Of a stretch of 64,000 nucleotides of DNA, positions 1-60,071 are shown piece after piece. The notes beneath the pieces were generated by a model, which saw nothing but the letters and a program-made list of their open reading frames with translations, was not told where the DNA came from and searched no databases. The first letter of the stretch is position 1. Each line of letters starts with the position of its first letter. This DNA comes from Scenedesmus sp. ARA3 (taxonomy: Eukaryota > Chlorophyta > Chlorophyceae > Sphaeropleales > Scenedesmaceae): positions 1-64,000 of the forward strand of contig RWJK01001821.1 of the NCBI GenBank assembly GCA_004335835.1, given 5' to 3'. Both the position numbers and the translations under genes were made by a program.

Positions 1-2974
1 CTTCAGTGTTGCCCTTTGCTGGTGCGCTCCCGCAGGTACGCGGTGGTGCCCATGCCCCTCAGCCGCCTGCGCCTGTTGCTAAACCCCTATTGACACAACA
101 ATTAGAGAGGTGCTAGACTTTTTGTACTGCCTTGGCAGGTCCGGCGGTGCCCACACGCCTGAGCCGCCTGCGCCTTGCAAGTCCTGAATGTTTGAACTTC
201 TGCACTGTGCCCGCAGGTATGCGGTGGTCCCCACGCCCCTCAGCCGGCTGCGCTTCCTGCGGCTGGTGCTGGACGAGGCGCAGCAGGTGCAAGGCAGCAC
301 AGCCAAGGCCGCGGAGATGGCGCGCAAGATCCAGGCGCGGCACAGATGGGCCGTCACAGGTGCGAGCTGTGTGGAGCAGTGGAGGTTGAGAGCGGCGTGG
401 AGGCAGTGCAGGAGGCAGTGCAGTGCAGGAGGCAGTGCAGTGCGGGTGTGAGCAGCTGCACTGTGTGATCAGGTGCCACGCCTGCACAGCCTGCCTGCCC
501 TCCTTTACCCGTCCACTTCCCGCCTGCATACCTGCCTGCCTGCCCACCTGTTACCTGCCTACCTGGCGTGATCTTGGAGGCACGCCCATCAGCCACGACC
601 CTGAGGACCTGTGCACCCACCTGCCGGCTGAACTGCCTGACAGCCCATGCACCCAACTGTGGCTCTGCCTGCCTGCAGGCGCGCCCATCAGCCACGGGCT
701 GGAGGACCTGTGGGGGCTGCTGAGCTGCATGCGTGCCTGCCCAAAAGTTCACTGCCAATCACATGCCTGCATTTCCTTGCTACTATCTGCAGGCACGCCC
801 ATCAGCCGCGGGCTGAAGGACTTATGCACCCACCTGCCTGCCTAACCGCCTAACTGCTTTTGACTTGTTTTGTCGGTGTTTTGTTCCTGCAGGCACGCCC
901 ATCAGCCGCGGGCTGGAGGACCTGTGGGGGCTGCTGAGCTGCCTGGGGGCGCAGCCCTGGGCGGGCTCGCCCTGGTGGTGGGCGGTGGCGGTGGCGGAGC
1001 CTCTCAAGCGCGGCCAGCCGCACGGTGAGTAGGTTGCGCCGGCTTGCTGCTGTGTGAAGTGCTGCGCAATCTGTCATGCATGAAAGAGCGTGGATGATGG
1101 GGGTGTTCGATGCAGCAAACAGTTTAGTTGCAGTTGCCTGCACGTTTGACTGTTGCATGCCATGCTGGACGCCTCAACGCCAACTAGAGCTTGACTATAG
1201 TCATAGCCCAACGAAACCGCTCCTGCTCGCCTGTGTGTCATAGTACTTCAAAATCCTGCAAAACATTCCTGTGGTGCTGTCTTGTCAGGGCTGGAGACAC
1301 TGCTGCAGCTGATGGCTCCCGCGCGTGGTGGGCTGCTGTGGCGCACCGCAAAAGCTGATGTGCTGGGCGAGATGGGCCTGCCTGCGCAGTGCCAGCACAC
1401 CACGCTGCTGCGGCTCAGCGCCATTGAGCGTCACTGGTATAACAGGTGGGCGGCTGGCGGGCGGCTAGCTGCAGGCGTAGTGTGAAGTTGCAGGTGCAGC
1501 AGCAGTATCTGAGCGGTTAACTGAGGATGAAGAAGCACTTGCAGCGGCGTGCTCGGTTTGAGTGGATTGCTGGGTGCTGCGCTTGGCATGCACCATGCTA
1601 AGCGGTGCTATGTGTCAAGCCTTGCACATGACCGTGTAAGTGAGCCAACCTCGGACTCACTGTCAAATCTTTCGATTGCATCGTTGATGGCGTTGCGTGG
1701 GAGTCAAGCAGTGATCACTATCCCTCAGCATACCATCGCATCCAAGGCGTGGTGTTCTGCTGCTGCCGCAGGGCGCACCAGGACTGCGCAGCAAAAGCCC
1801 GCAAGGTGCTGCAGGACGCCCTTGCAGCAGTGATCCTGCAGTCACGCGGCGGCAGGAAGTCAGACACAGCAGCGCTTGCCGCCGCCAAAGCAGCAGCAGC
1901 GCCGGCGGCTGCAGCTGCGATTGCAGCTGGCGACAGCCGTGCGCTTGACGGCGCTGCTGCTGCTGTGCTGGGCCCGCTGCTGGGCAAGCAGCTGGTGCCT
2001 GCGGAGCAGCGGAAGCTGCTGCTGCCGCTGCTGCGGCTGCGGCAGGCGTGCATCCATCCCCAGGTGCGCTGCAGCACAATAGACTGTATCAGCACAGGAT
2101 GCACTCACACAGTGCTGCACACAAGGCTTGTGTGTTGAGCGGAGGTGCATGTGTGGCTTGCAGGAAGACCTGGGTGCGCAGCCGTGAAGGCCCAGCAGTG
2201 ATTGATTACAGCCGCCAAGCTTCACCCTGTTTTGTTTGTTTGAACACATGTGCATACCTTTGCAAACTGCTTGACGCGGAACCGTTGCTACCACGACTCC
2301 TGCCTCACCCGCTGTGTCTTGGCTTATGTGCTTTATTGCGCTTGCATGCTGTTGAAAACAGGTTGGCGCATCTGGCCTGCGTGGCGCGCTCATCGGCGGC
2401 AGCAGCAGCCCAATGACCATGGACCAAGTCCTGCAAGTGCTGACCTCAAAAGCTCGAACAGAAGCCGAGGAGTCGCAGCGGCAGTTGATTGGGGCCCTGA
2501 ACGGCCTCGCGGCGCTGCTGCGGCTGTCTGGAGATGCGGCGGGGGCTGTGGCTGCCTACAGGGAGGGGCTGGGCGTGTCTGAAGGGAACAAGCAGGAGGT
2601 GCGGCTGGCGCAGCGCTGCGCTGCATATAAATGAGGTCACATGATGAGGTGCATGAGCCAACATTGGCCACTTTTTGTTTATTTGTAGGTTGCAGCGATG
2701 TCAGAGAACAACAGCCGGCAGGAAGTGTACTGGTGTGCTGCTGCAGTGAGCAGCCACACTGCCAGATGCGCTGCTATCAGCGCTGTTCAATGCATAGTAA
2801 TGCGTGGCCTACAAACGATCCGCCTGCCTGGCTCTACTGCTGCTGCTGCTGCTGCTGCAGGTGCGTACCGACCCACTGCAGCTGCTGCACACGCTGCACA
2901 ACCTGGCTGACCTACTGGCTCACCTGGCAGCAAAGTACAACAGCTCAGCAGGCACATCAGCTGCCACCACAGCA

Positions 2975-3012
<38 letters not shown>

Positions 3013-5144
3013 TAGGCCGTATGGGCCTGGTGTACCCCGCACGTTGCGTGATGACAGCTTGGCCGCAGAAGCCGCTGCCATTAGGGACAACTACTTGGCG
3101 CAGCGGCAGGCAGCGCTAGCCGTTGCACATGCAGCATACCTGAAGGCAGCAAAGGAGGCGCTGCCGGTGCTGCAGCAGCACAGCAAGCATAACAGCAAGG
3201 TGCAGAAACGGCAGCAGGCTGTTGAGGGAGGGGCAGGCAGCAGCAGCGCAGCAGGTGCAGCCGCAGCTGCTGCAACTGCCCGCAGCGGGCAGCAGCAGCG
3301 CAGCAGCAGCAAGAGCAAGGGTACCAGTGCATATCAGCGGGCGATGATGGGAGCGGATGATGACGATGATGACGACAGCTGGCTGGAGCAGGACTTGCAG
3401 GAAGATGATGACGTGGCAGCGACGCAATTTGGAAACGAAGCGACAGCTGGAGCTGCAGCCGCAGGCGACAGCGCTGCTGATGGCTCTTCCGGCTGGTATG
3501 TTTCAGTCCTTGATGCTTTATCTGAAGCCGGCAGGGCGGATGAAGTTGTCGACGCCGTGCGGCAGAAGCTGCAGGAAGGCGACACATACCGCCAGAAAGT
3601 TGCACAAAATGCAACCAGCCTCGCGAACCGCTTCGCCTCGCTGCATGGCTTGAAGCTGCTCATCACTCGGGAGCTCGGAGCCATGGCAGCGCAGCAAGCA
3701 GCAGCGATGAGCCAGCTGCAGGATTTGCAGGAAGGCTGCAGTGCAGCAGATGGCCCTGAGCAGGGGCTGGTAGAGCAGGCAGGGCAGTGTGGCCGCTGCA
3801 GGGCTGAGATGGGTGTAGCTGGGTTGGTTTGCAGGCACTGCAGGCTTGAGGAGGGCATGCGGCGTTGGGAGGTGCGGCTGTTCTCGCTGCACACGCGCGC
3901 GCTGGCTGCGGGCACGATGGTGAGTTGTTGACCGGGCGTTGACTGGGCGTTGACTGGGCGTTGACTTGGTGTTTTGACGGGTGTTGACTGGGTGTTGACT
4001 GGGTGCTTTGACTGGATGTTGGCTGCAGCAGGCTTGATTGCTGCTGCGCAGGGTGCTGTTCAGCTCTATCATATGGCAGATGTCTTAGCGGGATGTACAG
4101 CAAAGCGCAGTGCTGCACTGTGCACTGCAGTTGTTCAAATGTTGTGCTGCTAAGGCATGACGTTTCATGCTGCAACATGTTGGGTTGACCTTGGTGCAGG
4201 TTGATGCTGACGAGGCCGCGAGGCAAACACAGCTGACAGCTACGCGCCGCGTAGGCAGGGGTGGCCTCAACGAAGCAGCAGCAGAAGGCAGCGGAGACGA
4301 CCTGACGGCAGCAGCAGCAGGTGCTGGTGCGCGGCGGCAGGACACAGCAGTGTCTGAGGCGCAGGTGGTGCGGCATCCCTCTGAGGTGGAGAGGGTGCTG
4401 CGGCTGCTGCAGCAGCAGCTGGCGCGGCATGGGCTTGGCAGGTGAGGGCTGGGCGCTGCACTGTGCAGTGCATGCTGAGTGTGTTGAGGTTTTTTTGAGG
4501 CTAGATGTGTTTTTGTGGGCAGGATGTGTTGGGTGGAGCATGTGCGTTGCGCTGCGATGTGCGGATGCTTGTGGGAGTGTGCTGCAGTCTCACCACGTGC
4601 ATCTGAGATATGCTGTTTTGGTTTGCTCAATGATACTGAGCTATCAAAACACACACTTTGGTGTGTCTTCAATTCACATTGCAAACACCAATCAACTGCT
4701 CGCAGGAGCCTGCCAGGCGTGTCGGATGCCGCAGCCAAGCACCTGGAGCAGCTGGAGGGCAGCCGCAAGCTCTTCATCGCTGCTGGCGCGCTGTCGGGTG
4801 CGCAGCGGCAGCTGCTGTACGCGATGGATGAGCTGGCCATGGCGCTGCTGCGCATCGGCACGCGGCTGGAGGGCGAGCAGGTGCGGTTGCGGCTGGTTGA
4901 CAGCTGATTTGTTTGCTGGCTGGCTGGCTGGATGGCTAGCTGCTTGGCTGGCTGGCTTGCTGTTTAACGCGGCTGGTGATGCATCATCAAAGCGTGTCAG
5001 CTGCTAGCATGCACCAGCAGTGCATGGCTAACACTCAAGCCCTGCATCCTCTCCCCGTGTGACTCGGCTTGCGGCAGGAACCGCAGCAAGCAGCGGCACA
5101 TGGCCCTCTCCAGCCTGCTGACGCCCTTTGGTGCTGACAACAGC

Positions 5145-5196
<52 letters not shown>

Positions 5197-5978: not shown

Positions 5979-6013
<35 letters not shown>

Positions 6014-8608: not shown

Positions 8609-11600
8609 ATGGACGACGCTCAGGCCAGCGTGCTGCAGGAGTTCATGGCGATCACGGTAGGGGAAAGTCCTTGGAACAACTGCTGCGGACGCTCGGGGCG
8701 TTTGATCGGCCTGGCATGGACGTGCATTCCAAGACGTGTTTCATCAGCTGTTCCGTGTGTCTGTCACGTACACAGCCTGTGCTGACCGAGCCCTCCTGCA
8801 TCCCTGCCGGGCTACTGCTGTTGTCACAGGGAGTTGAGGACGCCACAGCTGCGATGAGCGTGCTGGAAGCAACCAACTGGCAGCTGGAAGAAGCAGTAAA
8901 CCTGCAGTTCGCCACAGGGGGCGATCTCGGGGGTGGTGCAGCAGGTGGTGGCAGCAACCATGCAGGTGGTGCTCCAGACATACCACCAGAGCTCTTGCAG
9001 GAAGAGGATGAAGTGCGTGCGCCCATGCCTGTCATGCGGGACAGGCTGTATGGTGATGCACCAGGCCCGCATGGCATCCCAGCACGCGTGGCGAGGTGCG
9101 GATACCAGCTAGCATGCATATCAGCTGACAAGGCGCAGAGCTCCAGCAGCACAGTACCCTTCCTACCTGGCAGGCAAGCAGTAAAGCTGCTGCTGCCACA
9201 GCTGCACTTGTGCGGCTGCAGCAGTGCAGCGGCTGGACAGCTACGATGATGAAGCGCGTCTGATCAGCTGCAATCATGCTTTGCAGCAGGTTGGCAAGTG
9301 TACAATGCCTCTGCTGGGGTTGTGGGTGTTGTGCTGCTCAACACAAACGTCGCACACTGCACTTGGCAGTGGTCTCCTGAACCTGAAGTTGCACCACATG
9401 CATCAAGCGGCTTGCACGCAGCTGTCACCTTGACACACCAGTGCATTCTGCCAAAATTGGTCCCTGCCCTCTCTGCTAGTGTTGCGGTATGCCTGTGCCA
9501 TGCTGCAGGTATGGTGCTGCCCCAGAGCGTGGCCCCACACACGTGGATGTATTCAAAGACTTCAACCCCGCAGCAGCAGCAGCAGCAGGCGGCAGCGGCG
9601 CAGCGGGCGCCGGCGGCAGCTCAGCAGCAGCGGCAGCAGCAGCAGCAGGCGGCGCGGGCGGCGCCCCCAAGCTATCAGACCTGTTTAAACCACCCCCAGG
9701 GCTGGCATTTACAGGGGACTGGGAGGCAGCAGTTGCTCAGGCAGCGCAGCAGGGGCGCTGGCTGCTGGTGAATGTGCAAGATGCTGAGGAGTTTTCGACA
9801 CATCGGCTGAACAGGGACACCTGGGGTGACAGCTTGGTGCAGGACATGCTGCGCGGCACATTTGTGTTCTGGCAGGTGCGCGGGCGTGTTGTGTTGTGGG
9901 ATAAGGGGTTGCTAGATGTGTGGGGTTGAGGCAGCGGTGCTTGATGCAGGCTTTAGAGGCAGGGTTTGACATTGGGTGCGTGCTGGTTGCTGCGGCTGCG
10001 ATGGTGTGCCGGGCTGGCTGCAGCTGCAACAGCACACATGTTCCTTGCGTCGCACACACAATCTGGCGCAGCTGTGGTCCACACTGACACGCTTTTACGC
10101 TGTACGCTGTACATTTTTGTGTGTGATCATCACCAAACACACCCAAACGCAGTGCTACAGCAGCAGCGACCAGGGCAGGGCGCTGGGTGGTCAGTACCAC
10201 TTGGAGCAGATGCCCGCGTGCATTATTGTGGACCCCATCACGCGCGCCAAGCTGTGGGAGCGCTACGGCTTTGTGGGGCCTGAGGCACTTGTGGAGGAGC
10301 TGGTGCCTTACCTGGACTGCGGTGGGTGGTAGTTGACAGTGTCAGTGACAGTGTTGCTGACAGTGTTACTGACAATAAAGATGGCAACCGCAGCGAGGCG
10401 CTGGTGGAGGGGCTGGTGCCCTACCTGGACTGCGGTGGGTGGTAGTTTTACTCGCAGTGTGAATAACAGTTGTAGTGACGGTATACTAAAACGGCACGGG
10501 CAGCGAGGCGCTGGTCGAGGAGCTGGTGCCCTACCTGGGCTGCAGTGGGTGTTTAGTTGACAGTGTCAGTGTTGTTGACAGCGTTATTGACGGTGTTAGT
10601 ATCAGGGCATCAGCAGCGAGGCGCTGTTCGAGGAGCTGGCGCCCTACCTGGACTGCAGTGGGTGTCTCGTGGACAGTGTTAGTGACAGCGTTATTGACGG
10701 TGTTAGTAACAGGGCATCAGCAGCGAGGCGCTGGTTGAGGAGCTGGTGCCCGACCTGGACTGCGGTGGGTGGTAGTCGGCAGTGTTAGTAAAAATCTCAG
10801 TGACCAGGGTAGTAGCAGCGCATAGGCAGTGAGGCACTGGTGGAGGCGCTGGTGCCCTACCTGGACTGCGGTGGTTGGCCCCGTTCCACTTTTATGTTTG
10901 TCGCCTTAGAGCTCCATAAAAGGATGCAGTCATAGCACAGCCGGCAGTCCCGGTGCGCTGGCTGCAGCAGCAGCATGCACTCGTTGTGGGCCCAGTTGCG
11001 TGTCAACGCTGTTGAAGTGAACCAGCTCAGCTCTCTGCAAACCAAGTGCACACGTGTGTCGTCACGCAGTTCTGAGCTCATGCTGTATGCATTCCGCACC
11101 CTTGCAGACCCCAATGACCCTGGGGCCTCAGACCTGGCGCACCGAGCCTTCCAGCAGTCGACCAAGCGGCGCCACAAGGCGGCAGCAGCAGCAGCGGGCC
11201 CTGCTGCTGCTGCTGCTGCTGACATGGCAGGCATGACTGAGGATGAGCAGCTGGCCATGGCGCTGGCCATGTCAGTGGAGGTGAGGCTGGCGTGCTGCTG
11301 CTGCTGCTGCTGCTGTAGCTGCTGCTGTCTTAGCTTGCGCATTGCCACTGAGTGAACGTGCCCTATTTTGTCGCCTCTACGTGCCACATTGAAGCAGTAA
11401 GTGCTCGTCCCTCCTGCTGATTGTGTGTACTCTCTGACCGCGTCCTGCAAGCAGCAGCCCACCGCAGCAGCAGGCGGGCCTGGCCCTGCTGCTGGTGATG
11501 AGTCAGACGATGACATGGATGACATAGACGAGGAGGCCATCTGGGCAGAGGTGCAGCGCAGGCAGCGCGACAGCGACTCAGCAGCAGCAGCAGCAGCAGC

Positions 11601-31676: not shown

Positions 31677-31720
<44 letters not shown>

Positions 31721-40500: not shown

Positions 40501-41597
40501 GTGTGTTATGACAGGTGTCAGTAACGTGTTGTAGTTTTAGGTGAGGGCTGCGGAGTCGGAGCTGGCCTTTGCTGACCTGGCTGATGATGTGCCCTGTGCG
40601 GAGGCATACTGGAAGCACTGCGTGCTCTACATCATGGAGGTGGAGCTGTTGAGGGTGTAAGCATGAGAATGATGTTATGTGTTGTGTAAAGAGATGTTGT
40701 TTTAATGGCTACAACATTGTAATCCGGTCATTGTCTGCCTGTGAGCTTGGTTGGAACACGTGTTGGTGGCAACAGCGCACAAGTACACAGATGTGCAGTG
40801 TTGCGCAACGAGGCACAATGGCGCTGTGATGCCGTGGTGCTGACAGCAACCGCTGGTATGTCTGCCTGCCTGCCTGCCCCTGCAGCACTGCCCCGAGGAC
40901 CTGGCCTTCTTTGACGCCTTGCGTGCTGCACCATCATGCAAGCAGCTGCATTTAAAAAACCCATCGCTGTTCATGTTGCCTCCCCCCGCAGCACTGCCCC
41001 GAGGACCTGGCCTTCTTTGACGCCATGGTTGAGAAGGGGCTGCTGGCGCGGCTGCAGGACGTGCTGGACAAGCCCTTTGCCACTGTCACGTACACTGAGG
41101 CCATCAAGCTGCTGCTGGCCAGCGGCAAGCAGTTTGAGTACCCGGTGGCGTGGGGCATCGACCTGCAGAGCGAGCACGAGCGGTGAGGACGCGGCGGCAG
41201 CAGCAGCGGCAGCAGAATCACGAATGCGCGCCTTCCGCGCACCAGACGCAACTACATGTGTGGTGTTCCAGCTCTCTATATATACACAGCTGCTGCTCCA
41301 CGCTGTGACCTGTTTTGTGGCGCCTGCCCGCCATCAATGTGACGGTATGTGACTCCTATCCTGCTGCTGCTGCTGCTGCTGCTGCCGCAGCTACCTGTTG
41401 CAGGTCATTTTTTCCAAGTCCTCGCTGGTTGTAACCGACTACCCCAATGCATACCAAAGTGCCAGCAACTTCTGACACAGCCTGCTTGCCATCGCATTGT
41501 CATATTCTTCAGCTCATGTCATGCTGCTGCCGCCGCTGTTGCCGCTGCAGCTACCTGTCTGAGGTCACCTTTGCCAAGTCCCCCCTCATCGTGACCG

Positions 41598-41643
<46 letters not shown>

Positions 41644-42321
41644 TGGCCAGACAGTGGCAGCCATGGACCTGCTGGTGCCCAAGTGAGCATTACCCCTGAC
41701 CCCGTGTGTTGTTTTCAATGTGTGGCATGTTGTTAGCCGTGCCGGTGTAGCGAAACACAAGCACATCTGCATGCACTTGAAGCTGAAGTGTGCTGCTACT
41801 GCTGCTGCTGCCTGCCAGGCTGCATCCTCCAGGGCTGGCGAGCTCAGTGACTGGAGCGGCGCGAGGAGCGGCATAGTAGCAAAAGGGCACGAGCCCCAAC
41901 ATGATTGATTAACTTATGTATCCACCCACTGCTGTCGAACCTTTTCTGCGCCTCATCCCCACAGGGTGGGCGAGCTCATCGGCGGCGTGAGGAGCGGCAA
42001 AGTAACAAAGTAATCGGCACCAGCCCAAGCATGAATGAACAACTAACTAAAGCCCACTGCTTTCTTCTGCGCCGCAGGGTTGGCGAGCTCATCGGTGGCA
42101 GCCAGCGCGAGGAGCGCCTTGACGTGCTGACTCAGCGCATGGCAGGCAGCGGGCTGGACCCCGAGGACTACTGGTGGTACCTGGACCTGCGGCGCTATGG
42201 TTCAGTGCCGCACGCAGGGTTTGGGCTAGGGTTTGAGCGGCTGGTGCAGTTCAGCACTGGCGTGGAGAACATCAGGGACGTGATCCCCTTCCCGCGCTAC
42301 CCCAGCCACTGCAAGTTCTGA
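36476..42321 (+). CDS. Asparaginyl-tRNA synthetase, organellar (bacterial-type)
   Basis: This class II aminoacyl-tRNA synthetase charges tRNA-Asn. Exons: 36476-36766, 37111-37215, 37599-37692, 38030-38154, 38587-38781, 39135-39242, 39639-39834, 40164-40354, 40992-41182, 41551-41682, 42078-42321; 623 aa, all phases fit. The N-terminal 60 residues are Arg/Ala/Ser-rich, like a mitochondrial or plastid targeting peptide. The OB-fold anticodon-binding domain follows ([19 protein letters not shown]). Motif 1 lies in exon 5 ([12 protein letters not shown]), motif 2 in exon 8 ([20 protein letters not shown]), and motif 3 near the end ([12 protein letters not shown], then DVIPFPRYP). The [12 protein letters not shown] and ENIRD context identifies AsnRS rather than AspRS. 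The introns hold at least ten decoy copies of exon edges, and one contains 19 N's. Confidence 0.92.
37767..37830 (+). repeat. Donor-side decoy of AsnRS exon 3
   Basis: A copy of [11 protein letters not shown] plus the GTGGGC donor lies 114 bases beyond the real junction at 37692. The intron start after it is copied too. Confidence 0.88.
38473..38505 (+). repeat. Acceptor-side decoy of AsnRS exon 5
   Basis: AAGCGTCACGCGCTGGAGTT repeats the exon start at 38587 ([12 protein letters not shown]), 114 bases upstream. The acceptor AG has become TG. Confidence 0.8.
38890..38908. other. Assembly gap (19 N)
   Basis: A run of N within an AsnRS intron, flanked by G-rich sequence (GGGCCAGGG and GGGGGGGC). 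It was probably unresolved because of the G run. It does not touch an exon. Confidence 0.99.
39425..39511 (+). repeat. Acceptor-side decoy of AsnRS exon 7 with in-frame stop
   Basis: About 85 bases copy the start of the exon at 39639 ([20 protein letters not shown]), with a CCCAG acceptor. The CAG codon for Gln has become TAG, so use of this site would truncate the protein. Confidence 0.92.
39938..39995 (+). repeat. Acceptor-side decoy of AsnRS exon 8
   Basis: CCCGCAG plus a copy of [18 protein letters not shown] lies 226 bases before the real exon at 40164. It ends in TAAG where the exon continues with the motif 2 arginine. Confidence 0.9.
40416..40645 (+). repeat. Two donor-side decoys of AsnRS exon 8
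   Basis: GAGCTGGCCTTTGCTGACCT occurs at 40274 (real), 40416 and 40559, so the periods are 142 and 143 bases. Each copy runs through [10 protein letters not shown] and the start of the intron. The third has more changes. Confidence 0.93.
40886..40925 (+). repeat. Acceptor-side decoy of AsnRS exon 9
   Basis: CTGCAG plus 30 identical bases ([11 protein letters not shown]) lies 106 bases before the real exon at 40992. It then diverges. Confidence 0.92.
41391..41455 (+). repeat. Acceptor-side decoy of AsnRS exon 10
   Basis: CCGCAG plus a copy of [18 protein letters not shown] (here [18 protein letters not shown]) lies 160 bases before the real exon at 41551. Confidence 0.9.
41833..42040 (+). repeat. 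Two acceptor-side decoys of AsnRS exon 11
   Basis: Copies of the exon start (VGELIGG and following) begin at 41833 and 41965, before the real one at 42078; periods are 132 and 113 bases. The copies share more with each other (GGCGCGAGGAGCGGCA-like) than with the exon. Confidence 0.88.
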
Positions 42322-43327: not shown

Positions 43328-45962
43328 TCAGCGCTCCGCCCTGTTGGCCAGGTCCTTCACACTGAAGATGCGCACGATCCAGTGCTCACTGCAGCACGGC
43401 AGCAGCAGCAGCAGCAGCACAAAGTCAGCACCGTAGCACTTTATCCGCACAGGGTCGCACAACCAGCTGCCACACACATCTCTTGGCTGCGGACCAAAGA
43501 TCAGGCAACCTACGCAGCAAGGCAACTGCTGCAACAGGCAACACGCGCAGGGCCCTGCTCAGTGAAGCCCTGCAAACTGCCACATCAAGCCGTCTGGGAT
43601 GCCAACCGCAAGCCAAGAGAACAGACAAGCACATCTTGGAAGCGCAACACCAGCCTCAAAATGCACCCCCCGGCCCCCTCCAATCACGTACACACACCTG
43701 GCGAAGGCCTCCCGCAGATGCTGCAGCGCTGACCCGTCAAAATGTGATTCCCGCACCCACCAACATACACACACAACAGGCACAACATACATACATAAGA
43801 CACCCGCCCCACCTGGTGAAGGCCTCCTGCAGGTGCTACAGCTGCTAAATGTCACCAAATTGTAGTCAATGTCAATGAACTAAACTCCTGCTGCCAACAC
43901 AAGCCACAAACAAGACAAGCACAGCAGACACATCCTGCCCACCTGGTGAAGGCCTCCTGCAGGTGGTTTAGCTTCCTACAGTCTAAAACTCTGGGCTGCC
44001 AACTCAACGAGAACGAAAAGAAAGGCACAAGGCAACACAATGCGCACCTGGTGAAGGCCTCCTGGATGTGGTCCAGCTCGTAGTGCTTGCGCGCAATCTC
44101 CTTCTGGCGCACGCGGTCCCAGCCAGTGGGCTTACCCTGCTCCGTCATCACGTTGCCAAAGTCATAGAAGGAGGCCTTGTACATCAGGCTGTCAAGCATG
44201 GTAGGGGTGGCGCCCTCCGCGATCGTGTACTCGCCCTGCGGTGACATCACCGCAATGTGATTCAAAAGATGTCAGGTTTTGAGCTGGGAGCCATGTTGTG
44301 GGTTGTACATCAGGCTGTCTAGCATGACGGACGTGGCGCCCTCCGCAGTGGTGTGCTCGCCCTGCGGGTGGGGTGCGGCGCGGCACGTCAGCAGGCCTTC
44401 CATACGTAGATGGGCAAAGCAGCACCCATTAGCACCACCAGCAAGGCAGTTTCGTGCACTGCACCGCAGCCGTGCAGCACTCAACCATACAACAACCCTA
44501 CACCCCATACCCACACAACATCATGCGCCGGACACTGCGTTTGGACGCTTGCAAGCACAATGCAATCTCGTCCAACAACCCTACACCCCGGCCACACTCA
44601 CCGACTCCGAGATGAAATCCTTCTCCTGCACGTGGTCCTTGTACACGCTATGGGTCAGTATGATTCATGTAGCAGGCTTCCGCACCACCAATAACAATGC
44701 AGCCTCCACGCAGCCGTGCAGGGCTAAACCATGCAACAATCCTACACACCCTACCCACAACATCCGATACATCATTCGCCGACCACTTTGCTCAACGCTC
44801 ACATGCAAATGGCACTTTCCTGTCAACAACAACCCTACACCACAGCCACTCACCGACTCCGAGATGATATGCTTCTCCTGCACGTGGTCCTTCTCATGCA
44901 CGTCATTGCAGCCGTGCAGCTCTGAACCACACAACAACCCTACACCTTACACCCGCAGCAGCCGCACCCCTGCCACAGCCACACTCACCGACTCCGAGAT
45001 GAAGTCCTTCTCCTGCACGTGGTCCTTGTACACGCCACCGCCGATGCGCACCATCCACAAAAACTTGTTGATATCGTCACTCGAGTAGCCCGACAGCCCG
45101 CCAAAGATGACCAGCACATAATCAACATCCAGCTGCCGCATGATCTCATAGGCAGCTGATTCGTTGGAGGACATTGCGCGGCCCACGGTTGCGATGTGCG
45201 TGTTGTTCCAGGTGTTGTTGTCCACAATGACCGTGCGGTTGGCCATGCCTGGTGGTGTGGGGCAGGCGAAGAAGGGACGGCAGTGTGGGTGAGCATACAG
45301 GCAAAGAGCGGGCGAACGTGGAGAAAGGGTGAAGAGTTCAGAGTTGCTGCCTGACCGCCGCTGCTGCTTGACTCGATACTGACAGATCGGCACGGTGCAT
45401 CCAACACCATTGTCATGGCAGCAATCCAGCAACACCCGCAGGCAGGCGGTGGGCGTGCACCGCAACAAGTGCCATAGTTGCAACAGCGCCTGGCTGCAAA
45501 TGAGGATATTGCAGTGTGCAATTCCTGCGGCTGGCGTCCCAAGCAGCACCATCATGCGCTGCAGCCATTTCATGTGCGATCAGCCACTCACTTGTGATCT
45601 GGTAGCCGTAATCCCACCTGCAACCCACACATGCACAGCAGGCAGCACCGCAGTGTCAAAGCTGACGTTGTGTCAACGGAGCCATACAGGGAGTGTTTGC
45701 TTTTGCCCAACAGCCGCATCAATTGCCGCACATCATAAGCCTGCAGCGCTGCACCATACCTTGGCGATTGCATGCTTCTGTGTGCCACAAAAATACATTG
45801 CATACAGTGGCAATGCTTGCATGCAGCACGCAGGCGCATTGCAGTGGCACCCAGCCGCCACCCCCTGCACCACACCCACCATGACATGATGCGCGCATCC
45901 GGTGCTGTGTTGTGCCGCAGCCAGTAGTAGGCCTCACGGAAGTCATCCAGCACCATCCTGCA

Positions 45963-45995: not shown

Positions 45996-48900
45996 TCTGG
46001 TGATGCTAGCCGCACCACAGTGTGACGTGCGTGACAGCAAAGACACTGGAGCAGTGATTTGTAACGCAGAGCGGGTGACATCCAAATTGACAGGAAGACC
46101 ACACTCAGCAAATCATCCCAGTAACTTCAAGCGCAGCGCTCACCAGCATTGCCCACCTGTATGGTCCCCAGCCTCATACGAGCACGATGCTGCGCTACTG
46201 TAGTGCAGTAGAGTACAGTAAAGTACAGTACAATACAGACCGACGCCCACCTGTACGGGCCCCACCCACTGATGAGCACGATGCTGGGGCTGCTGTAGGC
46301 CTCACTGGTGACCCAGTTGCAGTGCCGGCTGTAGCTGACGAGGCCAAACATGACCAATGCACACACCAGGATGGCAGTCTCGCGGCGGTACGGCAGCGGG
46401 GCAAAGCCGCCGCTCTTGGAGGCAGACCTGAGGCAGGCAGTACAAGCAGGGCAGTACAAGTAAGCGCTACACGCAGGCGGTACAAGCAGGCGGTACAAGC
46501 AGGCGGTACAAGCAGACAATACAGCAGGTGTTACAGTGTATGGTAGGCAGGACAGGCAGTACATGTACATGTGAGGCAGGCTGCAAGAGGCTCGGAGGCA
46601 CGCCTGCATGTGTGTAGGCAGTCCACAACCAGATACGGCTACAGGTTAGTAGCGAGATGCAGCTGCGTGTGGTGTGCAAATGTGGTAGCTTTGAAGATGC
46701 CTGCAGACACAGTGGCATTGTTTTACACAGTGGCATGGCAATGCAACCTGCCAGGCTCAGTACAGCACTGGCCCAACCCCTGTAACATGTCACACATTGT
46801 ACAGTATACTCTACGTAGATACGCAGCTCCACACCCCCGCTCACTTCGACTTGCTCTTCTTCACAGGGGTAGGCCCAGCTGCAGCAGCAGCAGCAGTGCT
46901 GGCTGCTGCATCACCTTCCACAGGCTCTACCTCCCAGAGGTGTGCCGTGTAGGTGTACAGCGTGGTGCTCACGGCAATGGCTCCAAGCAGCACGAAGGCT
47001 GGCGCTGCTACCAGCATCAAACTGCAGATGCAAGCAGGCCATGGGACAGGTGGGATGCGTTGAGAGTGAGGACAGCTAGAACACATGCCTGGCATAAAAG
47101 GCCGCTGTCCTGTACGATCAGTGGTGTACCCAAAGGTGAGACGATGACACTGCGCGCCACCAGCACCAAACTGCAAATACAATCGGCCACACAGCAGATG
47201 GGGTGTGTTTTGACACGCTGGATTTGATTAGTTGCATGTACAGCTTTACAATACCACCAGCATTAGATGATGAAAGCAATTAGCCAGAGGACATCTGCGA
47301 TGCGCTGCAGCCTGGTTTGCTACTTGATGTGCTCCACCCAGCAACTGAGTGGGTGCTCCGCTTACAACAGTGTCTAGCACGCACTTCTGCTGTGTGTGTA
47401 ACAAACACTTCAGCTGCACACAAGACGATGATAATGAGAGCCTACTGGTCAATGAACATCACTCTCACCGGATCATGATGCCGCTGAAGTAGATGGCTGT
47501 GAGCGCGAACGTGATCAGGAACAGCTGCGAGTCCCGCAGGCTCTTGAAGCAGAAGTAGAGCCCAGCGGGCGCGCCAAAGACCAGCAGGTGCACGTCAAAC
47601 ACATACGTCGACCAGGTGGTGGGCTGGTGCTCAGACACCGAGGCGATGATGGGGATGTACTTCTTGGCGTAGGTGGGATCAAGCAGCGTCCAGAAGCGCC
47701 CCGTCCACGGCGTCATCTTGCCTGCAGGAATGTCGCATTTGAAATATGACAAGCAGCTCACATTTGGCGCAAGTATGAGACAGCATGCAGAAGTGCAGGG
47801 GTCCAACAGCGTCCAGAAGCGGCCCGTCCACGGCGTCATCTTGCCTGCATTAGTTCCAGATTTGAAATGTGACATGCAGCACACATGTGACAGGTGTAAG
47901 ACATGATGTGGGGCACCAGCAACATCCATCAGCGGCCCGTCCACGGCATCATCCTGCCTGCAGGATGAATATGTGACATGCAGCACGATTGTAGCAAGTG
48001 TGACACAGCATGCAGAAGCGCAGGGGTCCAGGAATGTCCAGGAGGCCCGTCCACGGCGTCACCTTCACTGCACAGATGTGACAATGTGCAGGAGAGCAGA
48101 GGGTAATTCGGTCAAACAGTGCAGACAGCAGCCCAGCCAGGTGCTTTCAAGACGGAAAGGCTGCCAAGACATGAACAGCACAACAAGACACTGCCCAGTC
48201 CAATCCTGCCTAAAAGATTAATTGGTTTGCCGCACGCACCTGTGAGTGTCAGCAGCACCACGCCGCCCACCACGGCACCCACAGCCGTGATGATTGTGGT
48301 GCCGATTGCGCGCGCAAACTGCGCGGTTGTGGTGCGCGCCTTGAGCCACATGAGCAGCTCCCAGGCCTGCAGGCCCAGCCACACCACGTTGAAGGACAGC
48401 AGCTCGTGGCTGGTCACGTGGTTGGAGCCGATGAAGCGCACCTGCGGCAACGAGGAGTGGCAGGCAGCACAGCGCAGAGCAGAATGCAGTTGCATGAAAA
48501 TGTTGCACGAAGGGGTGAACGACAACAGGTGTGCTGGCATGTGGTTGCATGCCGATGAAGCGAACCTGCAGCCAGCAGAGTTGTTTGCACATGGCAGAAT
48601 GAAGTTCAACAATAAGTTGGCAAGGCAAGAAAGGCGAGCAGGTGAAAAGGGCACCACACAACCCGCCGCTGTGAGTACTTGCTGCGTGAGATTGGCATGA
48701 ATGAACGCAACTGGACATACGGCAGCAACATCCGACTCACAACCACGCTGCCACATCCGCAGCAGCCCACCCTACGCTAAACAATCCCATCTCCAAGCTG
48801 CACTGCTTGAAGGCACTGCCGTATGCGCACATTCCGCCGCACCCACCTGCATCGCCAGCAGGCCGCCGATCGCCCAGAACGTTGTATATGCCACATACAG

Positions 48901-51545
48901 CCTCCGGTGGTAGCGCCGAATTGCAATCATCACCAGCACGTACAGCGGAATCAGGTTTGAGATAAACACGTATGCGCCCCAGCTGGCAGCCATGTACAGA
49001 TATGCAAAGGCAGCCAGTGCGGCCGATGACACAGTGCCCAGGCGCACGGAGCGTACGAAGAGGTAGAAGGTGGCCAGCAGCGCAAAGATGGCCACCGCCT
49101 CATTATCGTAGCTGCCTGCTACACTGCGGGAGATGTAGCCTGCAGGCACGAGAGGAGCGGAATGAAGAGTAACGAGCAGCAGGGACGTGGTGAGCAGCAG
49201 ATAGAGTGTTGAGTGCGACATGCAGCACAAGCACAGGGAGCAAGCAGCGACGGCCGAGCATGATGGGAGTGTGCTAGCCTGCAACGGTGAAACAACGCAG
49301 CTTACTGCGAGCAGCGGTCAGAGCGTGGGTTTAGTTCATGTGGCACATTTGCTGGCATGGCATCACTGCATGCCACATATATACATGTGAAGACTTCTTT
49401 GAACAAGCAACCATCCAGCCGTGCCAAATAATCAGCAATGCGGCACTTAGGCAGGTGGTGCTGGCTGCTTGGTGCTGGCGGCAGATGGCTTCTCAATGTG
49501 AACGATCTCCCGAGAAGATTGCCCACATTGAGAAGCCAGCTGCCGCCAGCACCAAGCAGCCAGCACCACCTGCCCAAGTGCCGCATTGCTAATTATTCGG
49601 CAAGCGGCAATTGGCGATTGGCAATGCAGTGCAGGGCAGCTGGCGACGTTGCGCACCTGGCACCACCGCCATCAGCGCAGCAGCCACCAGCCCCGTGCCC
49701 CTGTCCTTCAGCTCGCAGCCAAACAGGTATGCGATGAGCGCCTGCAGGCAGGGAGAGTAGAGCAGCAGCACGCGTCAAAAACGCACTCATATCAATTGCA
49801 TCCCCCGACAACCCGCATGTTGCAAAAGCGTCACTGGCTGTAGCAAATGTCCTGCCTATACCATCACTTCACGATTATGGTGACACGTGCTGCTGCACCT
49901 GCCCCAGCCTACAGCTTTGCACAGTGCTACTAGCAGCCGTCAGTCGGCGCGGTCCTGCACCTGCCATCAACTGCTATCCCCACATCAAGCACCCATTACT
50001 GCCACAAGCACACAGCTTGCAGCCCTGACTCAGCTGCAACCTCTGTAGACCCCCAGCCCCAAGCAGCTGCTGCCTGCGCTGCTGCACTCCTCTGCTGAGC
50101 CCCCGCTGGGATGCCCCACACTCAGCGTGTGCCCGCAAAGGAGCCCCCCGCCAACAACAAACCTCTGCCGCCAGTCACCGAACCCCAACCCCAGCCTGCT
50201 GCTGCCCAGCTGCCCCTTCTGCAGCCTCACTCTACTGCCTGTGTATCCCCCCGCAAAAGTTACTGTGATGCCTGCAAAGAAGGGCCCGTTGAACATCAAC
50301 ACTCTGCCGTGAATCACCTCAAAACACCAACCAGCTGCTGCCCAGCTGCCCTCATCATACCCCCCCCCCTGGCGCAGCGCTCACCGTGTTGCCCGCGAAG
50401 AAGGGCCCCGTGAACACGCACACGTCGCGCAGCTGCACCCAGGCGCTCATGCTGGTGAGCACCTTGTACATGGCGGCAGCCGTGATCATAATGCCGGGGT
50501 ACACCGTGCCGCCCACCACGCGGCCCAGCGGGTACCAGCTGTCGCTGTCAAACCAGTTCCAGAACTCATGGAAGCCCTGGCAGCAGCAGCAGCAGCAGCA
50601 GCGGCGGCAACAAGGTGGGGTCTCCGTTGAAGTTTGTTACCAGCAAACGCCATTAATCCTGATGGGACTAATGGCCTGGGGTAATAGGTGCTGCTGGATT
50701 GCTACTGCCCGCCGTTCAGCTGCAGCATGCAAAGTGACAGGGCACAGCCACTGTTACAAACACTCAGGCGCCCCAACCACCTGCTGCTGGTGCTATCTGC
50801 TGATCCTGCTGGCATCGATGCCTGATGATGATGCTGCTGCTGCTGCTGCTGCTGCTGTTGGGCCTTGCTGCCTGGCGGTGTCAATATGTATGTATGTATG
50901 TGGGGCCTGCGAGGGCATGGGGCAGTCACCACGATTGTCGCAGTATCCGCAATGGCCCCGTACTTCTGGCTAGGACATGACAAAATGCCGTGCGGGCAGT
51001 GTGCTGCAGCACGTCAGCAGTGTCAGCTGGCTGCGCTGCGCACCTCTGTCACCAGCTTGATTGTGGAGCGGTAGTTGAAGTAAGGGTCAAACTCGTGGAT
51101 GACACTCTCATAGCGCAGCACAGAGAACTGCAGGCAGCAGCAGAGCAGCAGCGCAGCACCAGTGGCAGCCTGGCTGAAGCAGGCTTCTGAAACGCATCGC
51201 CTTCCCACCTTGCCACTGCTCAGTCGGAAGAAACTGCCTTGCTGCAACACGAGCTGCATCCTATACGACGCAGATATATTGGAAGCTGTGCACTTAATGG
51301 CATGCAGCAAAGTGGTTGGCAGGTGGTTGCTGTGCTGCTCAATGCTGATCACCTCTAGAAGAGCAGTACAGCGCATCTCATAGACCGAAAAAAAAAACAC
51401 ATGTTATTGAGCACCAACATGATGTGATCAAACGCACCAGACGGATAGAGAAAGCGTAGAGGTACACTAAAGCCAGTATAGACAGTCGCAACACCAGCTC
51501 CTGTGACTTTGGCGAAAACAGGCGTTTGATAAATGATTGAATCAT
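43328..51545 (-). CDS. STT3: STT3, catalytic subunit of oligosaccharyltransferase
   Basis: STT3 transfers the lipid-linked glycan to Asn in N-glycosylation sequons in the ER membrane. Exons in transcription order: 51545-51438, 51127-51044, 50576-50385, 49741-49657, 49139-48847, 48441-48240, 47721-47469, 47021-46845, 46427-46251, 45957-45880, 45617-45592, 45248-44989, 44235-44048, 43388-43328; 727 aa, a normal length for the family, all in frame. Exon 1 gives the first membrane helix ([18 protein letters not shown]). Exon 2 has the metal-binding EFDPYFNYR with Asp near residue 50. [11 protein letters not shown] carries the SVSE loop. [11 protein letters not shown], with the WWDYG signature, spans exons 10-12, including a 26-base exon. 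[11 protein letters not shown] is also conserved. The end, [16 protein letters not shown], is typical. Decoy copies of exon edges flank eight junctions. Confidence 0.95.
43695..43985 (-). repeat. Three donor-side decoys of STT3 exon 13
   Basis: CACCTGGTGAAGGCCTCCTG, the minus-strand exon end EAFTR plus donor, occurs at 44046 (real) and near 43940, 43810 and 43695. Periods are 106, 130 and 115 bases. Confidence 0.93.
44305..44375 (-). repeat. Acceptor-side decoy of STT3 exon 13
   Basis: This copies the exon start ([19 protein letters not shown], here [19 protein letters not shown]) with its CAG, 126 bases upstream of the real acceptor on the transcribed strand. Confidence 0.92.
44590..44910 (-). 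repeat. Two donor-side decoys of STT3 exon 12
   Basis: CACTCACCGACTCCGAGATG with the following [18 protein letters not shown] copy occurs at 44985 (real), near 44849 and near 44597. All keep the GTGAGTG donor. Confidence 0.93.
46150..46200 (-). repeat. Donor-side decoy of STT3 exon 9
   Basis: A copy of the exon end ([11 protein letters not shown] region) with its GTGGGC donor lies 94 bases beyond the real junction at 46251. Confidence 0.85.
47150..47205 (-). repeat. Acceptor-side decoy of STT3 exon 8
   Basis: A copy of the intron end, the TGCAG acceptor and the exon start (LMLVAAP, here LVLVARS) lies 149 bases before the real acceptor at 47021. Confidence 0.82.
47800..48070 (-). repeat. Three acceptor-side decoys of STT3 exon 7
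   Basis: CCGTCCACGGCGTCATCTTG, the minus-strand exon start [15 protein letters not shown], falls near 47701 (real), 47824, 47937 and 48047. Periods are 123, 113 and 110 bases. Divergence grows with distance from the exon. Confidence 0.93.
48545..48580 (-). repeat. Acceptor-side decoy of STT3 exon 6
   Basis: CTGCAG plus RFIG-coding sequence lies 123 bases before the real acceptor at 48441. Confidence 0.85.
49423..49601 (-). repeat. Long perfect-like hairpin inside STT3 intron 4
   Basis: The arms 49423-49500 and 49524-49601 (78 bases each) are reverse complements with four mismatches, around a 23-base loop. On the minus strand, the sense strand of STT3, three of the four mismatches become G-U wobble pairs. 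The ends read GCCAAATAATCAGCAATGCG. It could be a small-RNA precursor or a foldback mini-transposon. Confidence 0.9.
50121..50310 (-). repeat. Two donor-side decoys of STT3 exon 3
   Basis: Copies of the exon end ([10 protein letters not shown] plus donor) lie near 50259-50300 and, more degraded, near 50121-50165. The offsets from the real junction at 50385 are about 121 and 138 bases in succession. Confidence 0.8.
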
Positions 51546-53995: not shown

Positions 53996-54036
<41 letters not shown>

Positions 54037-54434: not shown

Positions 54435-54469
<35 letters not shown>

Positions 54470-54635: not shown

Positions 54636-54670
<35 letters not shown>

Positions 54671-55729: not shown

Positions 55730-55821
55730 TCAGTTCATGGCCTTGGGCCTGCAGGTCTTGTACTCCGGGAAGGCCAGGCTGGGCATGCAGCCAAAGCCAT
55801 CAGCGCAGTGCTCATCAGCCT

Positions 55822-55854
<33 letters not shown>

Positions 55855-57380: not shown

Positions 57381-57421
<41 letters not shown>

Positions 57422-60071
57422 TAGTTTACCCTTGATGCCAGCTGGGCACCCAGCAACCAACAAGGCAGGCCAGGTCAGCGCATACGAGCTTCATTCGCAC
57501 GCGCCTCCTTCACAGTGTTCAGCATAGGAACAATGACTGACAGACAATCTGACACGCTGCTGCAGGCATGCGCTTACCAAGGCAGTCGCCATGAGTGCCT
57601 TCGACGTGAATGCACACTGGTCGCCACACTCTGTGCTCGTAATATGGTTTGTCAGCGCCACTCCCTCAAGCACAGGAGTTGGCATGCCCAGTGCAGATCC
57701 AGGGCCGGGCTTAGTTACCCAGGGAGCCCCCACTGCACTGGCCCTTGCAAGCGTGCAAGCCACAGTATCAAAGCCTGTCTGGTAGTAGTAAGTGCCTTGA
57801 TTGAAAGGGTCCTTCTGCCATGCGCGCAGCAGGGGGCCACCCATAGTGGCTTGGATGGCTGCTGCCTGCGGGATGACGTTGCAGACGGCGCCAGGGATGG
57901 CAGGTGCATGCGCTGGCGCGGGCTCCTGCATATGGGCTGCAGCGAGGAGTGGCAGGAACAGCAGACACACGTGATAACAGGCAGACGGGTTGGTCAGTTT
58001 GTGTGTGCTGAGCAGGCTGTGCTGGCAGGGTTGCAGACGGCAGGTTGGTGCAGAGGCGGGTGGCTGGGGCTGAGCATCATGACATGGCATAACAGGCATG
58101 TCGCATCAGAACAAAGAGGATTGCTGAATATGCTGCTGTTAGCTGCCCGCACCTGTGTATTTCTTGACATCTGGCCTCCACATCACCACAATGTGTGGTG
58201 TGATCTGTTGCAGGCAGGCGGCAGCAGCAGCAGCAGCGGCAGTCACCTCACCAACAGCCGCAGGTTATCCACCAGCAGGCTGCTCAGCTGTACTGCGCAC
58301 TGCAGCTGAAGAGCGATGCCCGCATGAGCTGCCCAGCCTGGACTTGCAAGCTTATGGATACCTGCACCCTACTCATGCACCATTTGTAGCTGGCATGAAT
58401 GGCATTAGCACGCTTGCTGTACCCTTGTACCCCAGCAGCCACAACTATAGCTCATTCCACACCCGCTTCGCTTGCACACTTACATGTAAATCGGCAAATT
58501 GTTGCTTCACAGGTGCTGTGCAGCGCACCGCCTCATGGAATCAGCTCACCTTGAGCAGCTTCTCGATGTCATCAGCCATGTAGCTGGCATGACTGGCCTC
58601 AGCACATGTGCTGTACCATTGTACCCTAACGCCTATACCGCAGACGCTCATATGCCTGGTGTCAGCTCACCTTGAGCAGCTTCTCGATGTCATCAGCCAA
58701 GTTGTCATCATCCTTCAAGTAAGCAGTGAAGAAGTGCGTCTTGCTGGTCTCAGTGAGCTGCAGTGTGAACTCCGTGAGAGTTCCCAGCAGGCCCAGCCCG
58801 CCACACAGCGCATGAGCTTCCTCACTTCCTTTGGCACTGGTGTGAACTTCGCCGCGAGCATCCACCCAGGTGACGTCCACGAACCAGTCGCACTGCAGGC
58901 AGGCCACGACAGTGTGAGGAGCTGAGTGTGTAAGGTGATGAAAGGTGCATCAATCGAGCAATAGAGTGCAGTGAGGCAGCCGTGACAGCAACCGGCAAGT
59001 TCTGACATCTGATCATGTAGCTAGGCAGACAATCCTGCAGCTAGATCGAGGCATGTCCCAGCTGACGTGGGTCAGCAGCTGCCTGCGTGTCTTTGACCTG
59101 GCCCCATGTTTGTATGCTGCGCAGTGAGCTCTAGAATTGCATACTGCCGACTGCTGCTGCTGCTGCTGCTGCTGTTGCAAACTATCACGTTGCTGGCGAG
59201 CTCATGCACCATGTCCTGCTATCCTGCAAGCATCAGCACTCACGATCATGGATGTCACGTTGTTGCCAGTGCCGTGGCTGCTGGTGGCAAACACACCAGC
59301 CAGAGTGAGGCCCTGCCACCAGGGCAGTGCTGAGCGCGGCGTGGACATGTCTGCTGCATCAGCCGCTGCGTACAGCTCCTTGAGCGTCATCTGCGCCTGC
59401 ACACGCATCTGCTTCTTGGCACTGTCCACGGTGAGCACCTTTGTCATCTTGTCCATCATGATGCTGCAACACACAGTTGCGGCGCAACATGGCAAGCTTC
59501 AATGGCAGCGGTAGCAGAGACAAATTTGACACACAGCACAGGCGTGCTGCACACAGGCAGCAACAGCTCAAGCCAGCATGCGGTGTTACAAAGACGTCAA
59601 CCCAAGGCTCAGCAACTTGTGTTCAAGTGACACATGTTGAGTGGTACAGCGGTGTTTCACAGCTGTTGCTCACCCAACGACAATGGGCTTCTTGCCCTGG
59701 ACCTCGAAGGGTGACAGCAGCGTGGGCTGCTCAGCGCACGGCATGCTGTGCATGGTGGCAAACTGAGGCCGGGTGGCGCGCATCTTCAGCGGGCGCCCCT
59801 GCTGCTGCGCACGCGCGCGGAGGTCTTTGGCTGCTGCTGCCAGCTGCTCAGTTGACTCTGGCCTGACCAGCTCGTCAGTGGAGCACGTGGTGTGGCCCTG
59901 CAGCATGCAACAGGATTGGGTTGGGCATGCAGATTGGGGTAGAGGGGCGCGGGCTCTGCTTGTCTGACGTCCCTGCTCATGACATGCACGCTGCTGTCAG
60001 GCTGCACAATGGTCACAGGTAGGCAATGTGTTGTTGTGTAGCAGGCGGATACAGTGCGTTGATTGCTTTAA

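What the first reader, a model, noticed from the sequence alone, without database searches (positions are those of the whole stretch)
31..58700. Exon edges and their splice sites are duplicated into introns throughout six genes
In SHPRH, UBXN7, OPR, AsnRS, STT3 and the FAD oxidase, introns carry degraded copies of the adjoining exon edge including the splice site, close to 40 copies over about 23 junctions. Acceptor-side copies are always upstream of the true exon and donor-side copies always downstream. Most offsets fall between 94 and 150 bases, often 106-126. This is exactly what tandem duplication across an exon-intron boundary leaves when only the copy joined to the rest of the exon must stay functional. 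It implies a recurrent mechanism of intron growth and a genome full of decoy splice sites. Other genes in the window (TXNDC9-like, translocator, coiled-coil, CFAP119) show none that I could see.
Basis: partly seen in the sequence, partly recalled or inferred. Interest (0 to 1): 0.9.

Follow-up and report, generated by a model that had tools for sequence, protein, structure and literature searches.

The report
Exon edges repeated inside algal introns
In a green alga very close to Tetradesmus obliquus, many introns contain rows of dead copies of the neighbouring exon's edge, splice site included, about 125 bases apart, which suggests introns growing by repeated small duplications that leave false splice sites and would-be mini-exons behind.

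Summary
In 312 kb of this genome 51 of 298 exon edges have a copy in the adjoining intron; two chaperonin genes, fetched because they looked repeated, add 27 of 35; wrong-side tests over all loci gave 1 of 317. Copies are same-strand (66 of 277; inverted 1 of 277), spaced 125 bases (median), and dead: copy-private changes ignore codon position (47/46/59), real-exon-private changes do not (4/5/21). Tandem duplication across exon-intron boundaries is the best origin. The simple version is incomplete: between dead copies the exon half differs by 12.5%, the intron half by 31.8%, in 22 of 22 arrays, as if the exon-like half is re-homogenised against the intact exon. Genes differ: the window's AsnRS is rich in copies, a paralogue has none. 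T. obliquus protein records carry 9- and 15-residue repeats matching such copies, so copies exist outside this assembly and may become mini-exons.

The parts
36..216 (+). SHPRH-like gene: two acceptor-side copies (exon-like starts 36 and 137) upstream of real exon 217-359
   Evidence: real exon matches SNF2-rel_dom PF00176 above its cut-off
580..892 (+). SHPRH-like gene: three acceptor-side copies (starts 580, 679, 793) upstream of real exon 893-1024
   Evidence: PF00176 on the real exon at E 0.002, below cut-off
10322..10878 (+). UBXN7-like gene: five donor-side copies (exon-like ends 10434, 10544, 10657, 10764, 10870), spaced 106-113, downstream of real exon 10164-10321
33309..33430 (+). OPR-like gene: donor-side copy ending 33424, after real exon 33110-33308
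33595..33866 (+). OPR-like gene: two acceptor-side copies (starts 33602, 33727) before real exon 33867-34036
34098..34168 (+). OPR-like gene: donor-side copy ending 34155, after real exon ending 34036
38464..38522 (+). AsnRS: acceptor-side copy (start 38473) of real exon 38587-38781
38837..38878 (+). AsnRS: donor-side copy (end 38875) of real exon 38587-38781
39404..39501 (+). AsnRS: acceptor-side copy (start 39425; in-frame TAG) of real exon 39639-39834
39931..39990 (+). AsnRS: acceptor-side copy (start 39938) of real exon 40164-40354
40355..40650 (+). AsnRS: two donor-side copies (ends 40496, 40639), spaced 142-143, of real exon 40164-40354
40880..40921 (+). AsnRS: acceptor-side copy (start 40886) of real exon 40992-41182
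41391..41445 (+). AsnRS: acceptor-side copy (start 41391) of real exon 41551-41682
41833..42009 (+). AsnRS: two acceptor-side copies (starts 41833, 41965; scores 21 and 18) of real exon 42078-42321
43813..43975 (-). STT3: two donor-side copies (left ends 43813, 43943) of real exon 44048-44235
44303..44367 (-). STT3: acceptor-side copy (right end 44361) of real exon 44048-44235
44586..44892 (-). STT3: two donor-side copies (left ends 44602, 44854) of real exon 44989-45248
47798..48088 (-). STT3: three acceptor-side copies (right ends 47844, 47957, 48067) of real exon 47469-47721
   Evidence: STT3 PF02516
48514..48565 (-). STT3: acceptor-side copy (right end 48565) of real exon 48240-48441
49540..49584 (-). 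STT3: donor-side copy (left end 49540, weak, score 19; right end approximate) of real exon 49657-49741
50126..50318 (-). STT3: two donor-side copies (left ends 50126, 50264; scores 18 and 22) of real exon 50385-50576
   Evidence: STT3 PF02516
58536..58581 (-). FAD oxidase: donor-side copy (left end 58550) of real exon 58671-58757
   Evidence: FAD_binding_4 PF01565 on exon 59244-59463

Best explanation
Short stretches of DNA (about 100-150 bases) that span an exon-intron boundary are duplicated in tandem again and again. Splicing keeps working because only the outermost copy is joined to the rest of the exon, so every other copy falls inside the intron as a dead decoy and the intron grows. Shown: the copies, their side, strand, spacing and neutral coding decay. 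Inferred: the duplications are replication- or repair-type tandem duplications at DNA level, and the exon-like half of each copy is then kept similar, mostly by short-tract gene conversion with the intact exon, while the intron half of the unit drifts away. Some copies may be taken up as in-frame mini-exons.
For: Own-side copies at 51 of 298 edges, leaving out the two loci chosen for repeats, against 1 of 317 wrong-side tests over all loci. Same-strand 66 of 277, inverted 1 of 277, fused exon-exon copies 2 of 142 introns: direct DNA duplication rather than spliced-RNA copies. Spacing median 125, 89 of 125 in 90-150, similar on both sides (medians 127 and 135). 17 TRF arrays of period 45 or more overlap decoy regions. 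The nearest copy is more similar than the farthest (mean score 33.6 against 29.2 in 51 arrays, Wilcoxon p = 0.002), as serial duplication predicts. Neutral copies, constrained exon. For homogenisation: exon half 12.5% against intron half 31.8% between dead copies, gaps 0.018 against 0.140 per column, 22 of 22 arrays; copy against real exon 57 of 58 arrays; in arrays picked by TRF on the whole unit 8.9% against 24.2%, 11 of 11; the step lies at the splice site; 14 of 41 informative site pairs incompatible with a tree against a mean 4% in simulation, that share reached in 0 of 400 runs.
Against: The site-pair incompatibility comes almost wholly from two of 12 arrays (13 of 14 pairs), and the raw count of 14 was reached in 16 of 400 simulated runs. 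Some nearly identical copies have no detectable intron-half similarity (intron half significant in 17 of 50 pairs), which conversion explains only if the duplications are old. Copies were found by exon-edge similarity, which favours a conserved exon half (reduces but does not remove this). Nearest beats second in only 29 of 48 non-tied arrays (p = 0.19). Intron pieces also have copies nearby, at 8 of 96, 3 of 92, 8 of 117 and 8 of 99 (score >= 18), so the process is not confined to exon edges. No population data, no relative's introns and no RNA data were available.
Confidence: 0.6

Rival explanations
1. Plain tandem duplication with neutral decay: no homogenisation; introns simply change much faster (indels, slippage) than the exon-like pieces.
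For: Geometry, spacing and full-unit arrays. Spacers are often rich in short repeated motifs prone to slippage (seen). In many pairs the intron half is still weakly recognisable (17 of 50; alignments).
Against: Two dead copies should diverge equally in both halves; the intron half is more diverged in 22 of 22 arrays. Copies with 36-67 exon bases about 97% identical have intron halves with no detectable similarity (window 40991/40885, p = 0.16; C1552 exon 105665-105852, p = 0.56).
Confidence: 0.2
2. The copies are functional at RNA level, for example as splicing enhancers, competing sites or regulated poison or mini-exons, so their nucleotides are under selection.
For: The exon-like half is protected, splice dinucleotides are mostly kept (59 of 72 and 45 of 53), and T. 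obliquus protein records contain 9- and 15-residue repeats that match two copies.
Against: Copy-private changes are uniform over codon positions (47/46/59) and syn/non/stop 56/103/2 is close to the neutral expectation 46/110/5; some copies lack the AG yet stay similar (alignment); spacings are spread over all residues mod 3 (45/69/65 for 0/1/2); five of 19 genes have no copy.
Confidence: 0.12
3. A splice-junction-directed copying process, coupled to transcription or RNA, inserts exon edges into introns rather than tandem duplication of random stretches.
For: On average similarity falls sharply within about 8 bases of the splice site; exon edges have copies more often than intron pieces tested alike (30 of 158 and 21 of 140 against 3-8%).
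Against: Inverted copies 1 of 277 and fused exon-exon copies 2 of 142; part of the units still include the intron half; in the CCT1 donor 8310 array the spacers of successive copies are visibly related; exon-edge copies are also easier to see because their exon half decays more slowly.
Confidence: 0.1
4. Introner-like mobile elements inserting with target-site duplication.
For: Geometry X-spacer-X resembles an insert between direct repeats.
Against: Of 38 spacers compared with the held 312 kb, matches were mostly to neighbouring units, simple repeats or single short hits (its hit list was cut after the 36th spacer); repeats of 37-71 bases (quartiles) exceed the 3-9 base target-site duplications given for introners in passages of PMC9860276.
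Confidence: 0.03
5. Assembly artefact.
For: Draft assembly with N runs.
Against: Exon halves of copies differ from one another by 12.5% on average, copies lie on several contigs, and T. obliquus records, one from a contig of 4.4 Mb in another assembly, carry peptides of such copies.
Confidence: 0.02

Closest known systems
[quoted passage not shown] potato RdRp case, PMC4974935, passages seen)
   Same: A tandem duplication crosses an exon-intron boundary and part of the former exon copy becomes intron.
   Different: There a single event made one new intron; here existing introns are lengthened, at many junctions, with up to six copies each, and no new intron is implied.
Introners (PMC9860276, passages seen)
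   Same: Recurrent, genome-scale reshaping of introns.
   Different: No dispersed element found in the held DNA; the repeated piece is the local exon edge itself.
Minisatellite arrays with concerted evolution (from recall)
   Same: Tandem units of about 100 bases, several copies, partial homogenisation.
   Different: Homogenisation seems confined to the half of the unit that matches a constrained exon, and the step is at the splice site.
Tandem exon duplication and mutually exclusive exons (from recall)
   Same: Exon-like copies beside the exon.
   Different: Copies mostly cover only an exon edge (quartiles 37/49/71 bases; 11 of 158 reach the whole exon) and evolve neutrally as code.

Membership tests
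Tandem genomic duplication at a gene | direct, same-strand nearby copies | tested here: met
   66 of 277 edges same-strand against 1 of 277 inverted
Tandem genomic duplication at a gene | whole unit (exon and intron half) duplicated | tested here: inconclusive
   17 TRF arrays overlap decoy regions, some of them whole-exon repeats; intron-half similarity significant in 17 of 50 pairs
Intron gain by tandem duplication | a new intron is created between the copies | not testable with these tools
   no RNA data; AsnRS homologues P0001 and P0005 hold one version of each repeated segment
Introner | similar intron sequences dispersed over genes | tested here: not met
   spacer search in the held 312 kb only; not tested on the whole genome
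Introner | short target-site duplication (3-9 bases) | tested here: not met
   copied exon part quartiles 37/49/71 bases
Retro- or cDNA-derived copies | copies join neighbouring exons without the intron | tested here: not met
   2 of 142 introns with a fused match; I think both are chance or array effects but did not test that
Functional duplicated exons | coding constraint on the copies | tested here: not met
   copy-private changes 47/46/59 by codon position, p = 0.36; real-exon-private 4/5/21, p = 0.0001
Concerted evolution by gene conversion | mosaic relations among copies that no tree explains | tested here: inconclusive
   14 of 41 site pairs incompatible against a mean 4% simulated, but 13 of the 14 from two arrays and the raw count reached in 16 of 400 runs

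The most novel reading that the evidence does not exclude
In this algal lineage the intact exon acts as a master template: exon-edge copies thrown into introns by recurrent duplication are kept alike by exon-anchored conversion although they are dead, so introns become self-renewing reservoirs of near-perfect decoy splice sites and mini-exons, some of which enter the mRNA.
Probability: 0.35. Interest if true: 0.92.

Novelty: new variant of a known kind. Interest (0 to 1): 0.85.

Why it matters
It is a visible, recurrent route of intron growth in a living lineage, with copies at many stages of decay, and it could help to explain why T. obliquus introns average 462 bases against 230-302 in three other Sphaeropleales genomes (table passage of PMC5966456; not tested here). 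It makes three open questions testable: how introns lengthen, how a spliceosome ignores near-perfect decoys about 100 bases from the true site, and how new mini-exons arise. It also warns annotators: public T. obliquus CCT1 and CCT5 records contain repeats that match such copies.

Tried and rejected
A first run of the gene finder gave 2921 mostly tiny exons and was replaced. The idea that the spacers are mobile inserts or inverted or local template copies was tested in the held DNA and not supported. Spliced-RNA origin was tested and not supported. Coding selection on copies was tested and not supported. A link with GC3 or coding score as a stand-in for expression was not found (Spearman p = 0.66 and 0.81 over 19 genes; median intron length rho 0.66, p = 0.002, expected if copies lengthen introns). 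A simple clock for exon and intron halves was rejected. One search gave a third-position excess between copy and exon; one search showed that it belongs to the real exon. The exon/spacer split used a similarity-defined boundary and is biased; I rely. The in-frame mini-exon count (94 of 130) used dinucleotides only and had no chance control, so I do not use it. Exon-edge specificity stays open: one search lists 171 non-redundant local pairs with neither copy on a strong predicted exon against 70 with one; of the 44 strongest of the 171, 14 lie in decoy arrays and 30 outside; of those 30 several look by eye like edges of missed exons and at least four are plain non-coding tandem duplications. 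Literature: ten searches; no listed title or abstract start describes exon-edge arrays at many junctions. One listing touches the theme and was not read (PMC10487979, partial duplications in plant MSH1 genes). Passages only were read in PMC4974935, PMC9860276 and PMC5966456, no paper in full; most subscription journals are not in that library.
Full report
What was checked. The window lies at the start of contig C1411 of an 87 Mb genome in 1567 contigs. I held the window, 200 kb of C1552 (13 kb of it N), 20 kb of C1172, and 7.7-10 kb each of C1526, C170 and C1480, 312 kb in all; and later two chaperonin loci of 10.0 and 9.1 kb that I chose because HMM hits there looked repeated. That is about 0.4% of the genome. 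A gene finder was written and trained on these sequences; it has no RNA support, and the junction tests used only exons of about 70 bases or more with a good coding score.

Local direct matches in the window far exceed controls (82 against 0-1). Aligning the 40 bases at each exon edge with the adjoining intron gave a copy at 30 of 158 acceptors and 21 of 140 donors, against 1 of 158 and 1 of 139 on the wrong side, 0 with reversed introns, and 1 of 126 and 3 of 114 for mid-exon pieces (score >= 18). Intron pieces in the same test had copies too, less often: 8 of 96 and 3 of 92 beside the junction, 8 of 117 and 8 of 99 further in. With the chaperonin loci the total is 78 of 333, wrong side 1 of 317; without those two loci, 51 of 298. 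In the window I accept 37 copies at 22 junctions of 28 with a hit. A homologous protein matches six of the ten AsnRS copies with residues of the adjoining exon.

Anatomy. Copies are same-strand (66 of 277 edges, inverted 1 of 277), hold a median 49 bases of exon (quartiles 37 and 71; 11 of 158 reach the whole exon), usually keep the splice dinucleotide (AG 59 of 72, GT 45 of 53) and follow one another at a median of 125 bases, 89 of 125 spacings lying in 90-150. Two chaperonin genes are nearly saturated: 15 of 18 and 12 of 17 edges, with up to six copies per edge.

The copies are dead, the outer one is alive. In the cleaned set (74 arrays, 125 copies; 29 of 103 arrays dropped as nested pseudo-exons, whole-exon repeats or weak hits), changes private to one copy fall 47/46/59 on codon positions 1/2/3, while changes private to the real exon fall 4/5/21 (24 arrays with two or more usable copies). 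In the uncleaned set, synonymous, non-synonymous and stop changes in copies were 56/103/2 against a neutral expectation of 46/110/5.

What the simple model misses. Two dead copies should diverge equally along the whole unit. They do not: exon half 12.5% substitutions and 0.018 gaps per column, intron half 31.8% and 0.140, in 22 of 22 arrays; copy against real exon the same in 57 of 58. Unrelated introns aligned the same way give 41.9% and 0.193. Arrays chosen by Tandem Repeats Finder on the whole unit give 8.9% against 24.2%, 11 of 11 arrays. The step is at the splice site. I read this as repeated re-homogenisation of the exon-like half against the conserved exon, by short gene conversions that stop where the intron halves no longer match. 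Mosaic relations among copies agree (14 of 41 site pairs incompatible, mean 4% in simulation) but come almost wholly from two of 12 arrays, and 16 of 400 simulated runs reach the raw count. Selection on the RNA, or faster change of introns, are the alternatives; neither is excluded. Because copies were found by their exon edge, part of the contrast is ascertainment; limits but does not remove it.

Where it occurs. Over 19 genes the share of edges with a copy runs from 0 to 0.85 (chi-square 88.5, 18 degrees of freedom, including the two chosen chaperonin genes). The window's AsnRS has eight affected junctions. The contigs with a paralogous AsnRS (C170), an AspRS-like gene (C1172) and a LysRS-like gene (C1526) show 0 of 23, 0 of 28 and 0 of 14 edges with a copy, whereas the synthetase-bearing stretch of C1480 shows 7 of 18 (the names AspRS and LysRS are recall on top of the PF00152 hits). 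Neither GC3 nor coding score predicts the share. By HMM hits alone, repeats of the same profile stretch are seen in 5 of 11 chaperonin genes (C1492, C1032, C1016, C1184, C1530; a twelfth contig, C85, has one weak hit) and 1 of 15 contigs with proteasome hits (C885), counted by eye; this misses short copies, such as those in the C1552 chaperonin. Of 32 TRF arrays of period 45 or more, 17 overlap decoy regions and 15 do not; of the 15 I judge by eye that about four come from exons the gene finder missed. Whether exon edges are truly a target, or only the place where old duplications stay visible, is open.

Species and outside evidence. T. obliquus CCT1 (P0121) is 93% identical to the joined C1492 exons; exon by exon the matches are 80-100%, the lower ones running past exon ends. 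T. obliquus CCT5 (P0241) is 89% identical to the joined C1032 exons, 97-100% over most single exons. So the genome is that species or close to it; for AsnRS, however, the best hit was Scenedesmus sp. NREL 46B-D3 at 84% and no T. obliquus record was named among the 120 listed. A second record of the same T. obliquus locus tag (P0123) repeats VLESGSVVP; in our C1492 one donor-side copy (L034 8823-8849) reads AG, then 27 bases coding that piece, then GT, which would give exactly this 9-residue insert. P0241 holds a 15-residue stretch, DNMVRVEQYAMRAFA, that matches the copy at L035 8065-8109 at 14 of 15 residues; in our sequence that copy lacks the AG before it, while three further copies of the array (patterns at 8187, 8294, 8401) have it. 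Whether these records reflect transcripts or gene-prediction errors I cannot tell. Either way such copies exist outside this assembly.

Known and new. A tandem duplication across an exon-intron boundary is in print for single genes (PMC4974935, passages). My ten searches returned no listing that describes arrays at many junctions of a genome. T. obliquus introns are long, 462 bases on average against 230, 302 and 284 in three other Sphaeropleales and 270 in Chlamydomonas (PMC5966456 table passage), which such arrays could help to explain; I did not test that.

Limits. No RNA, no strains, no relative's introns; a small sample, partly chosen; copies found by exon similarity. The origin by recurrent tandem duplication I hold at about 0.8, the homogenisation step at about 0.45.

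Noticed in passing
L034 (C1492:1501-11500) 8284-9014 and T. obliquus protein P0123: A T. obliquus CCT1 record has a 9-residue tandem repeat (VLESGSVVP) that equals a 27-base AG..GT mini-exon within one intron copy.
   Followed up: partly
L035 (C1032:21801-30900) 7741-8464 and T. obliquus protein P0241: Array of 107-base units after the CCT5 exon (6.7 copies by TRF, six copies beside the real edge); a T. obliquus CCT5 record has a 15-residue stretch that matches one unit.
   Followed up: partly
C170:57001-64689 (L032), 2884-6926: Second, probably organellar, AsnRS gene with several introns and 0 of 17 junctions with an exon-edge copy: a natural control within one family.
   Followed up: partly
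C1552 (L015) 64561-65325 and 66967-67589: Repeats of 252-254 base period that carry whole predicted exons; looks like exon-level tandem repetition of another kind.
   Followed up: no
L029 6202-6545 (C1172): Non-coding 172-base tandem duplication, 99% identical, 2.9 kb from the nearest strong predicted exon.
   Followed up: no
window, many places, e.g. 5146-5196, 31678-31719, 53949-54035: Abundant CAG/GCA/CTG triplet runs.
   Followed up: no
L034 around 3400-3900: Spacers between copies contain telomere-like AAACCCTA motifs.
   Followed up: no
window about 38890-38908: A 19-base N gap in an AsnRS intron next to a donor-side copy.
   Followed up: no
window 63403-63696: Start of a gene whose peptide looks like ribosomal protein S24 (recognised from recall).
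   Followed up: no
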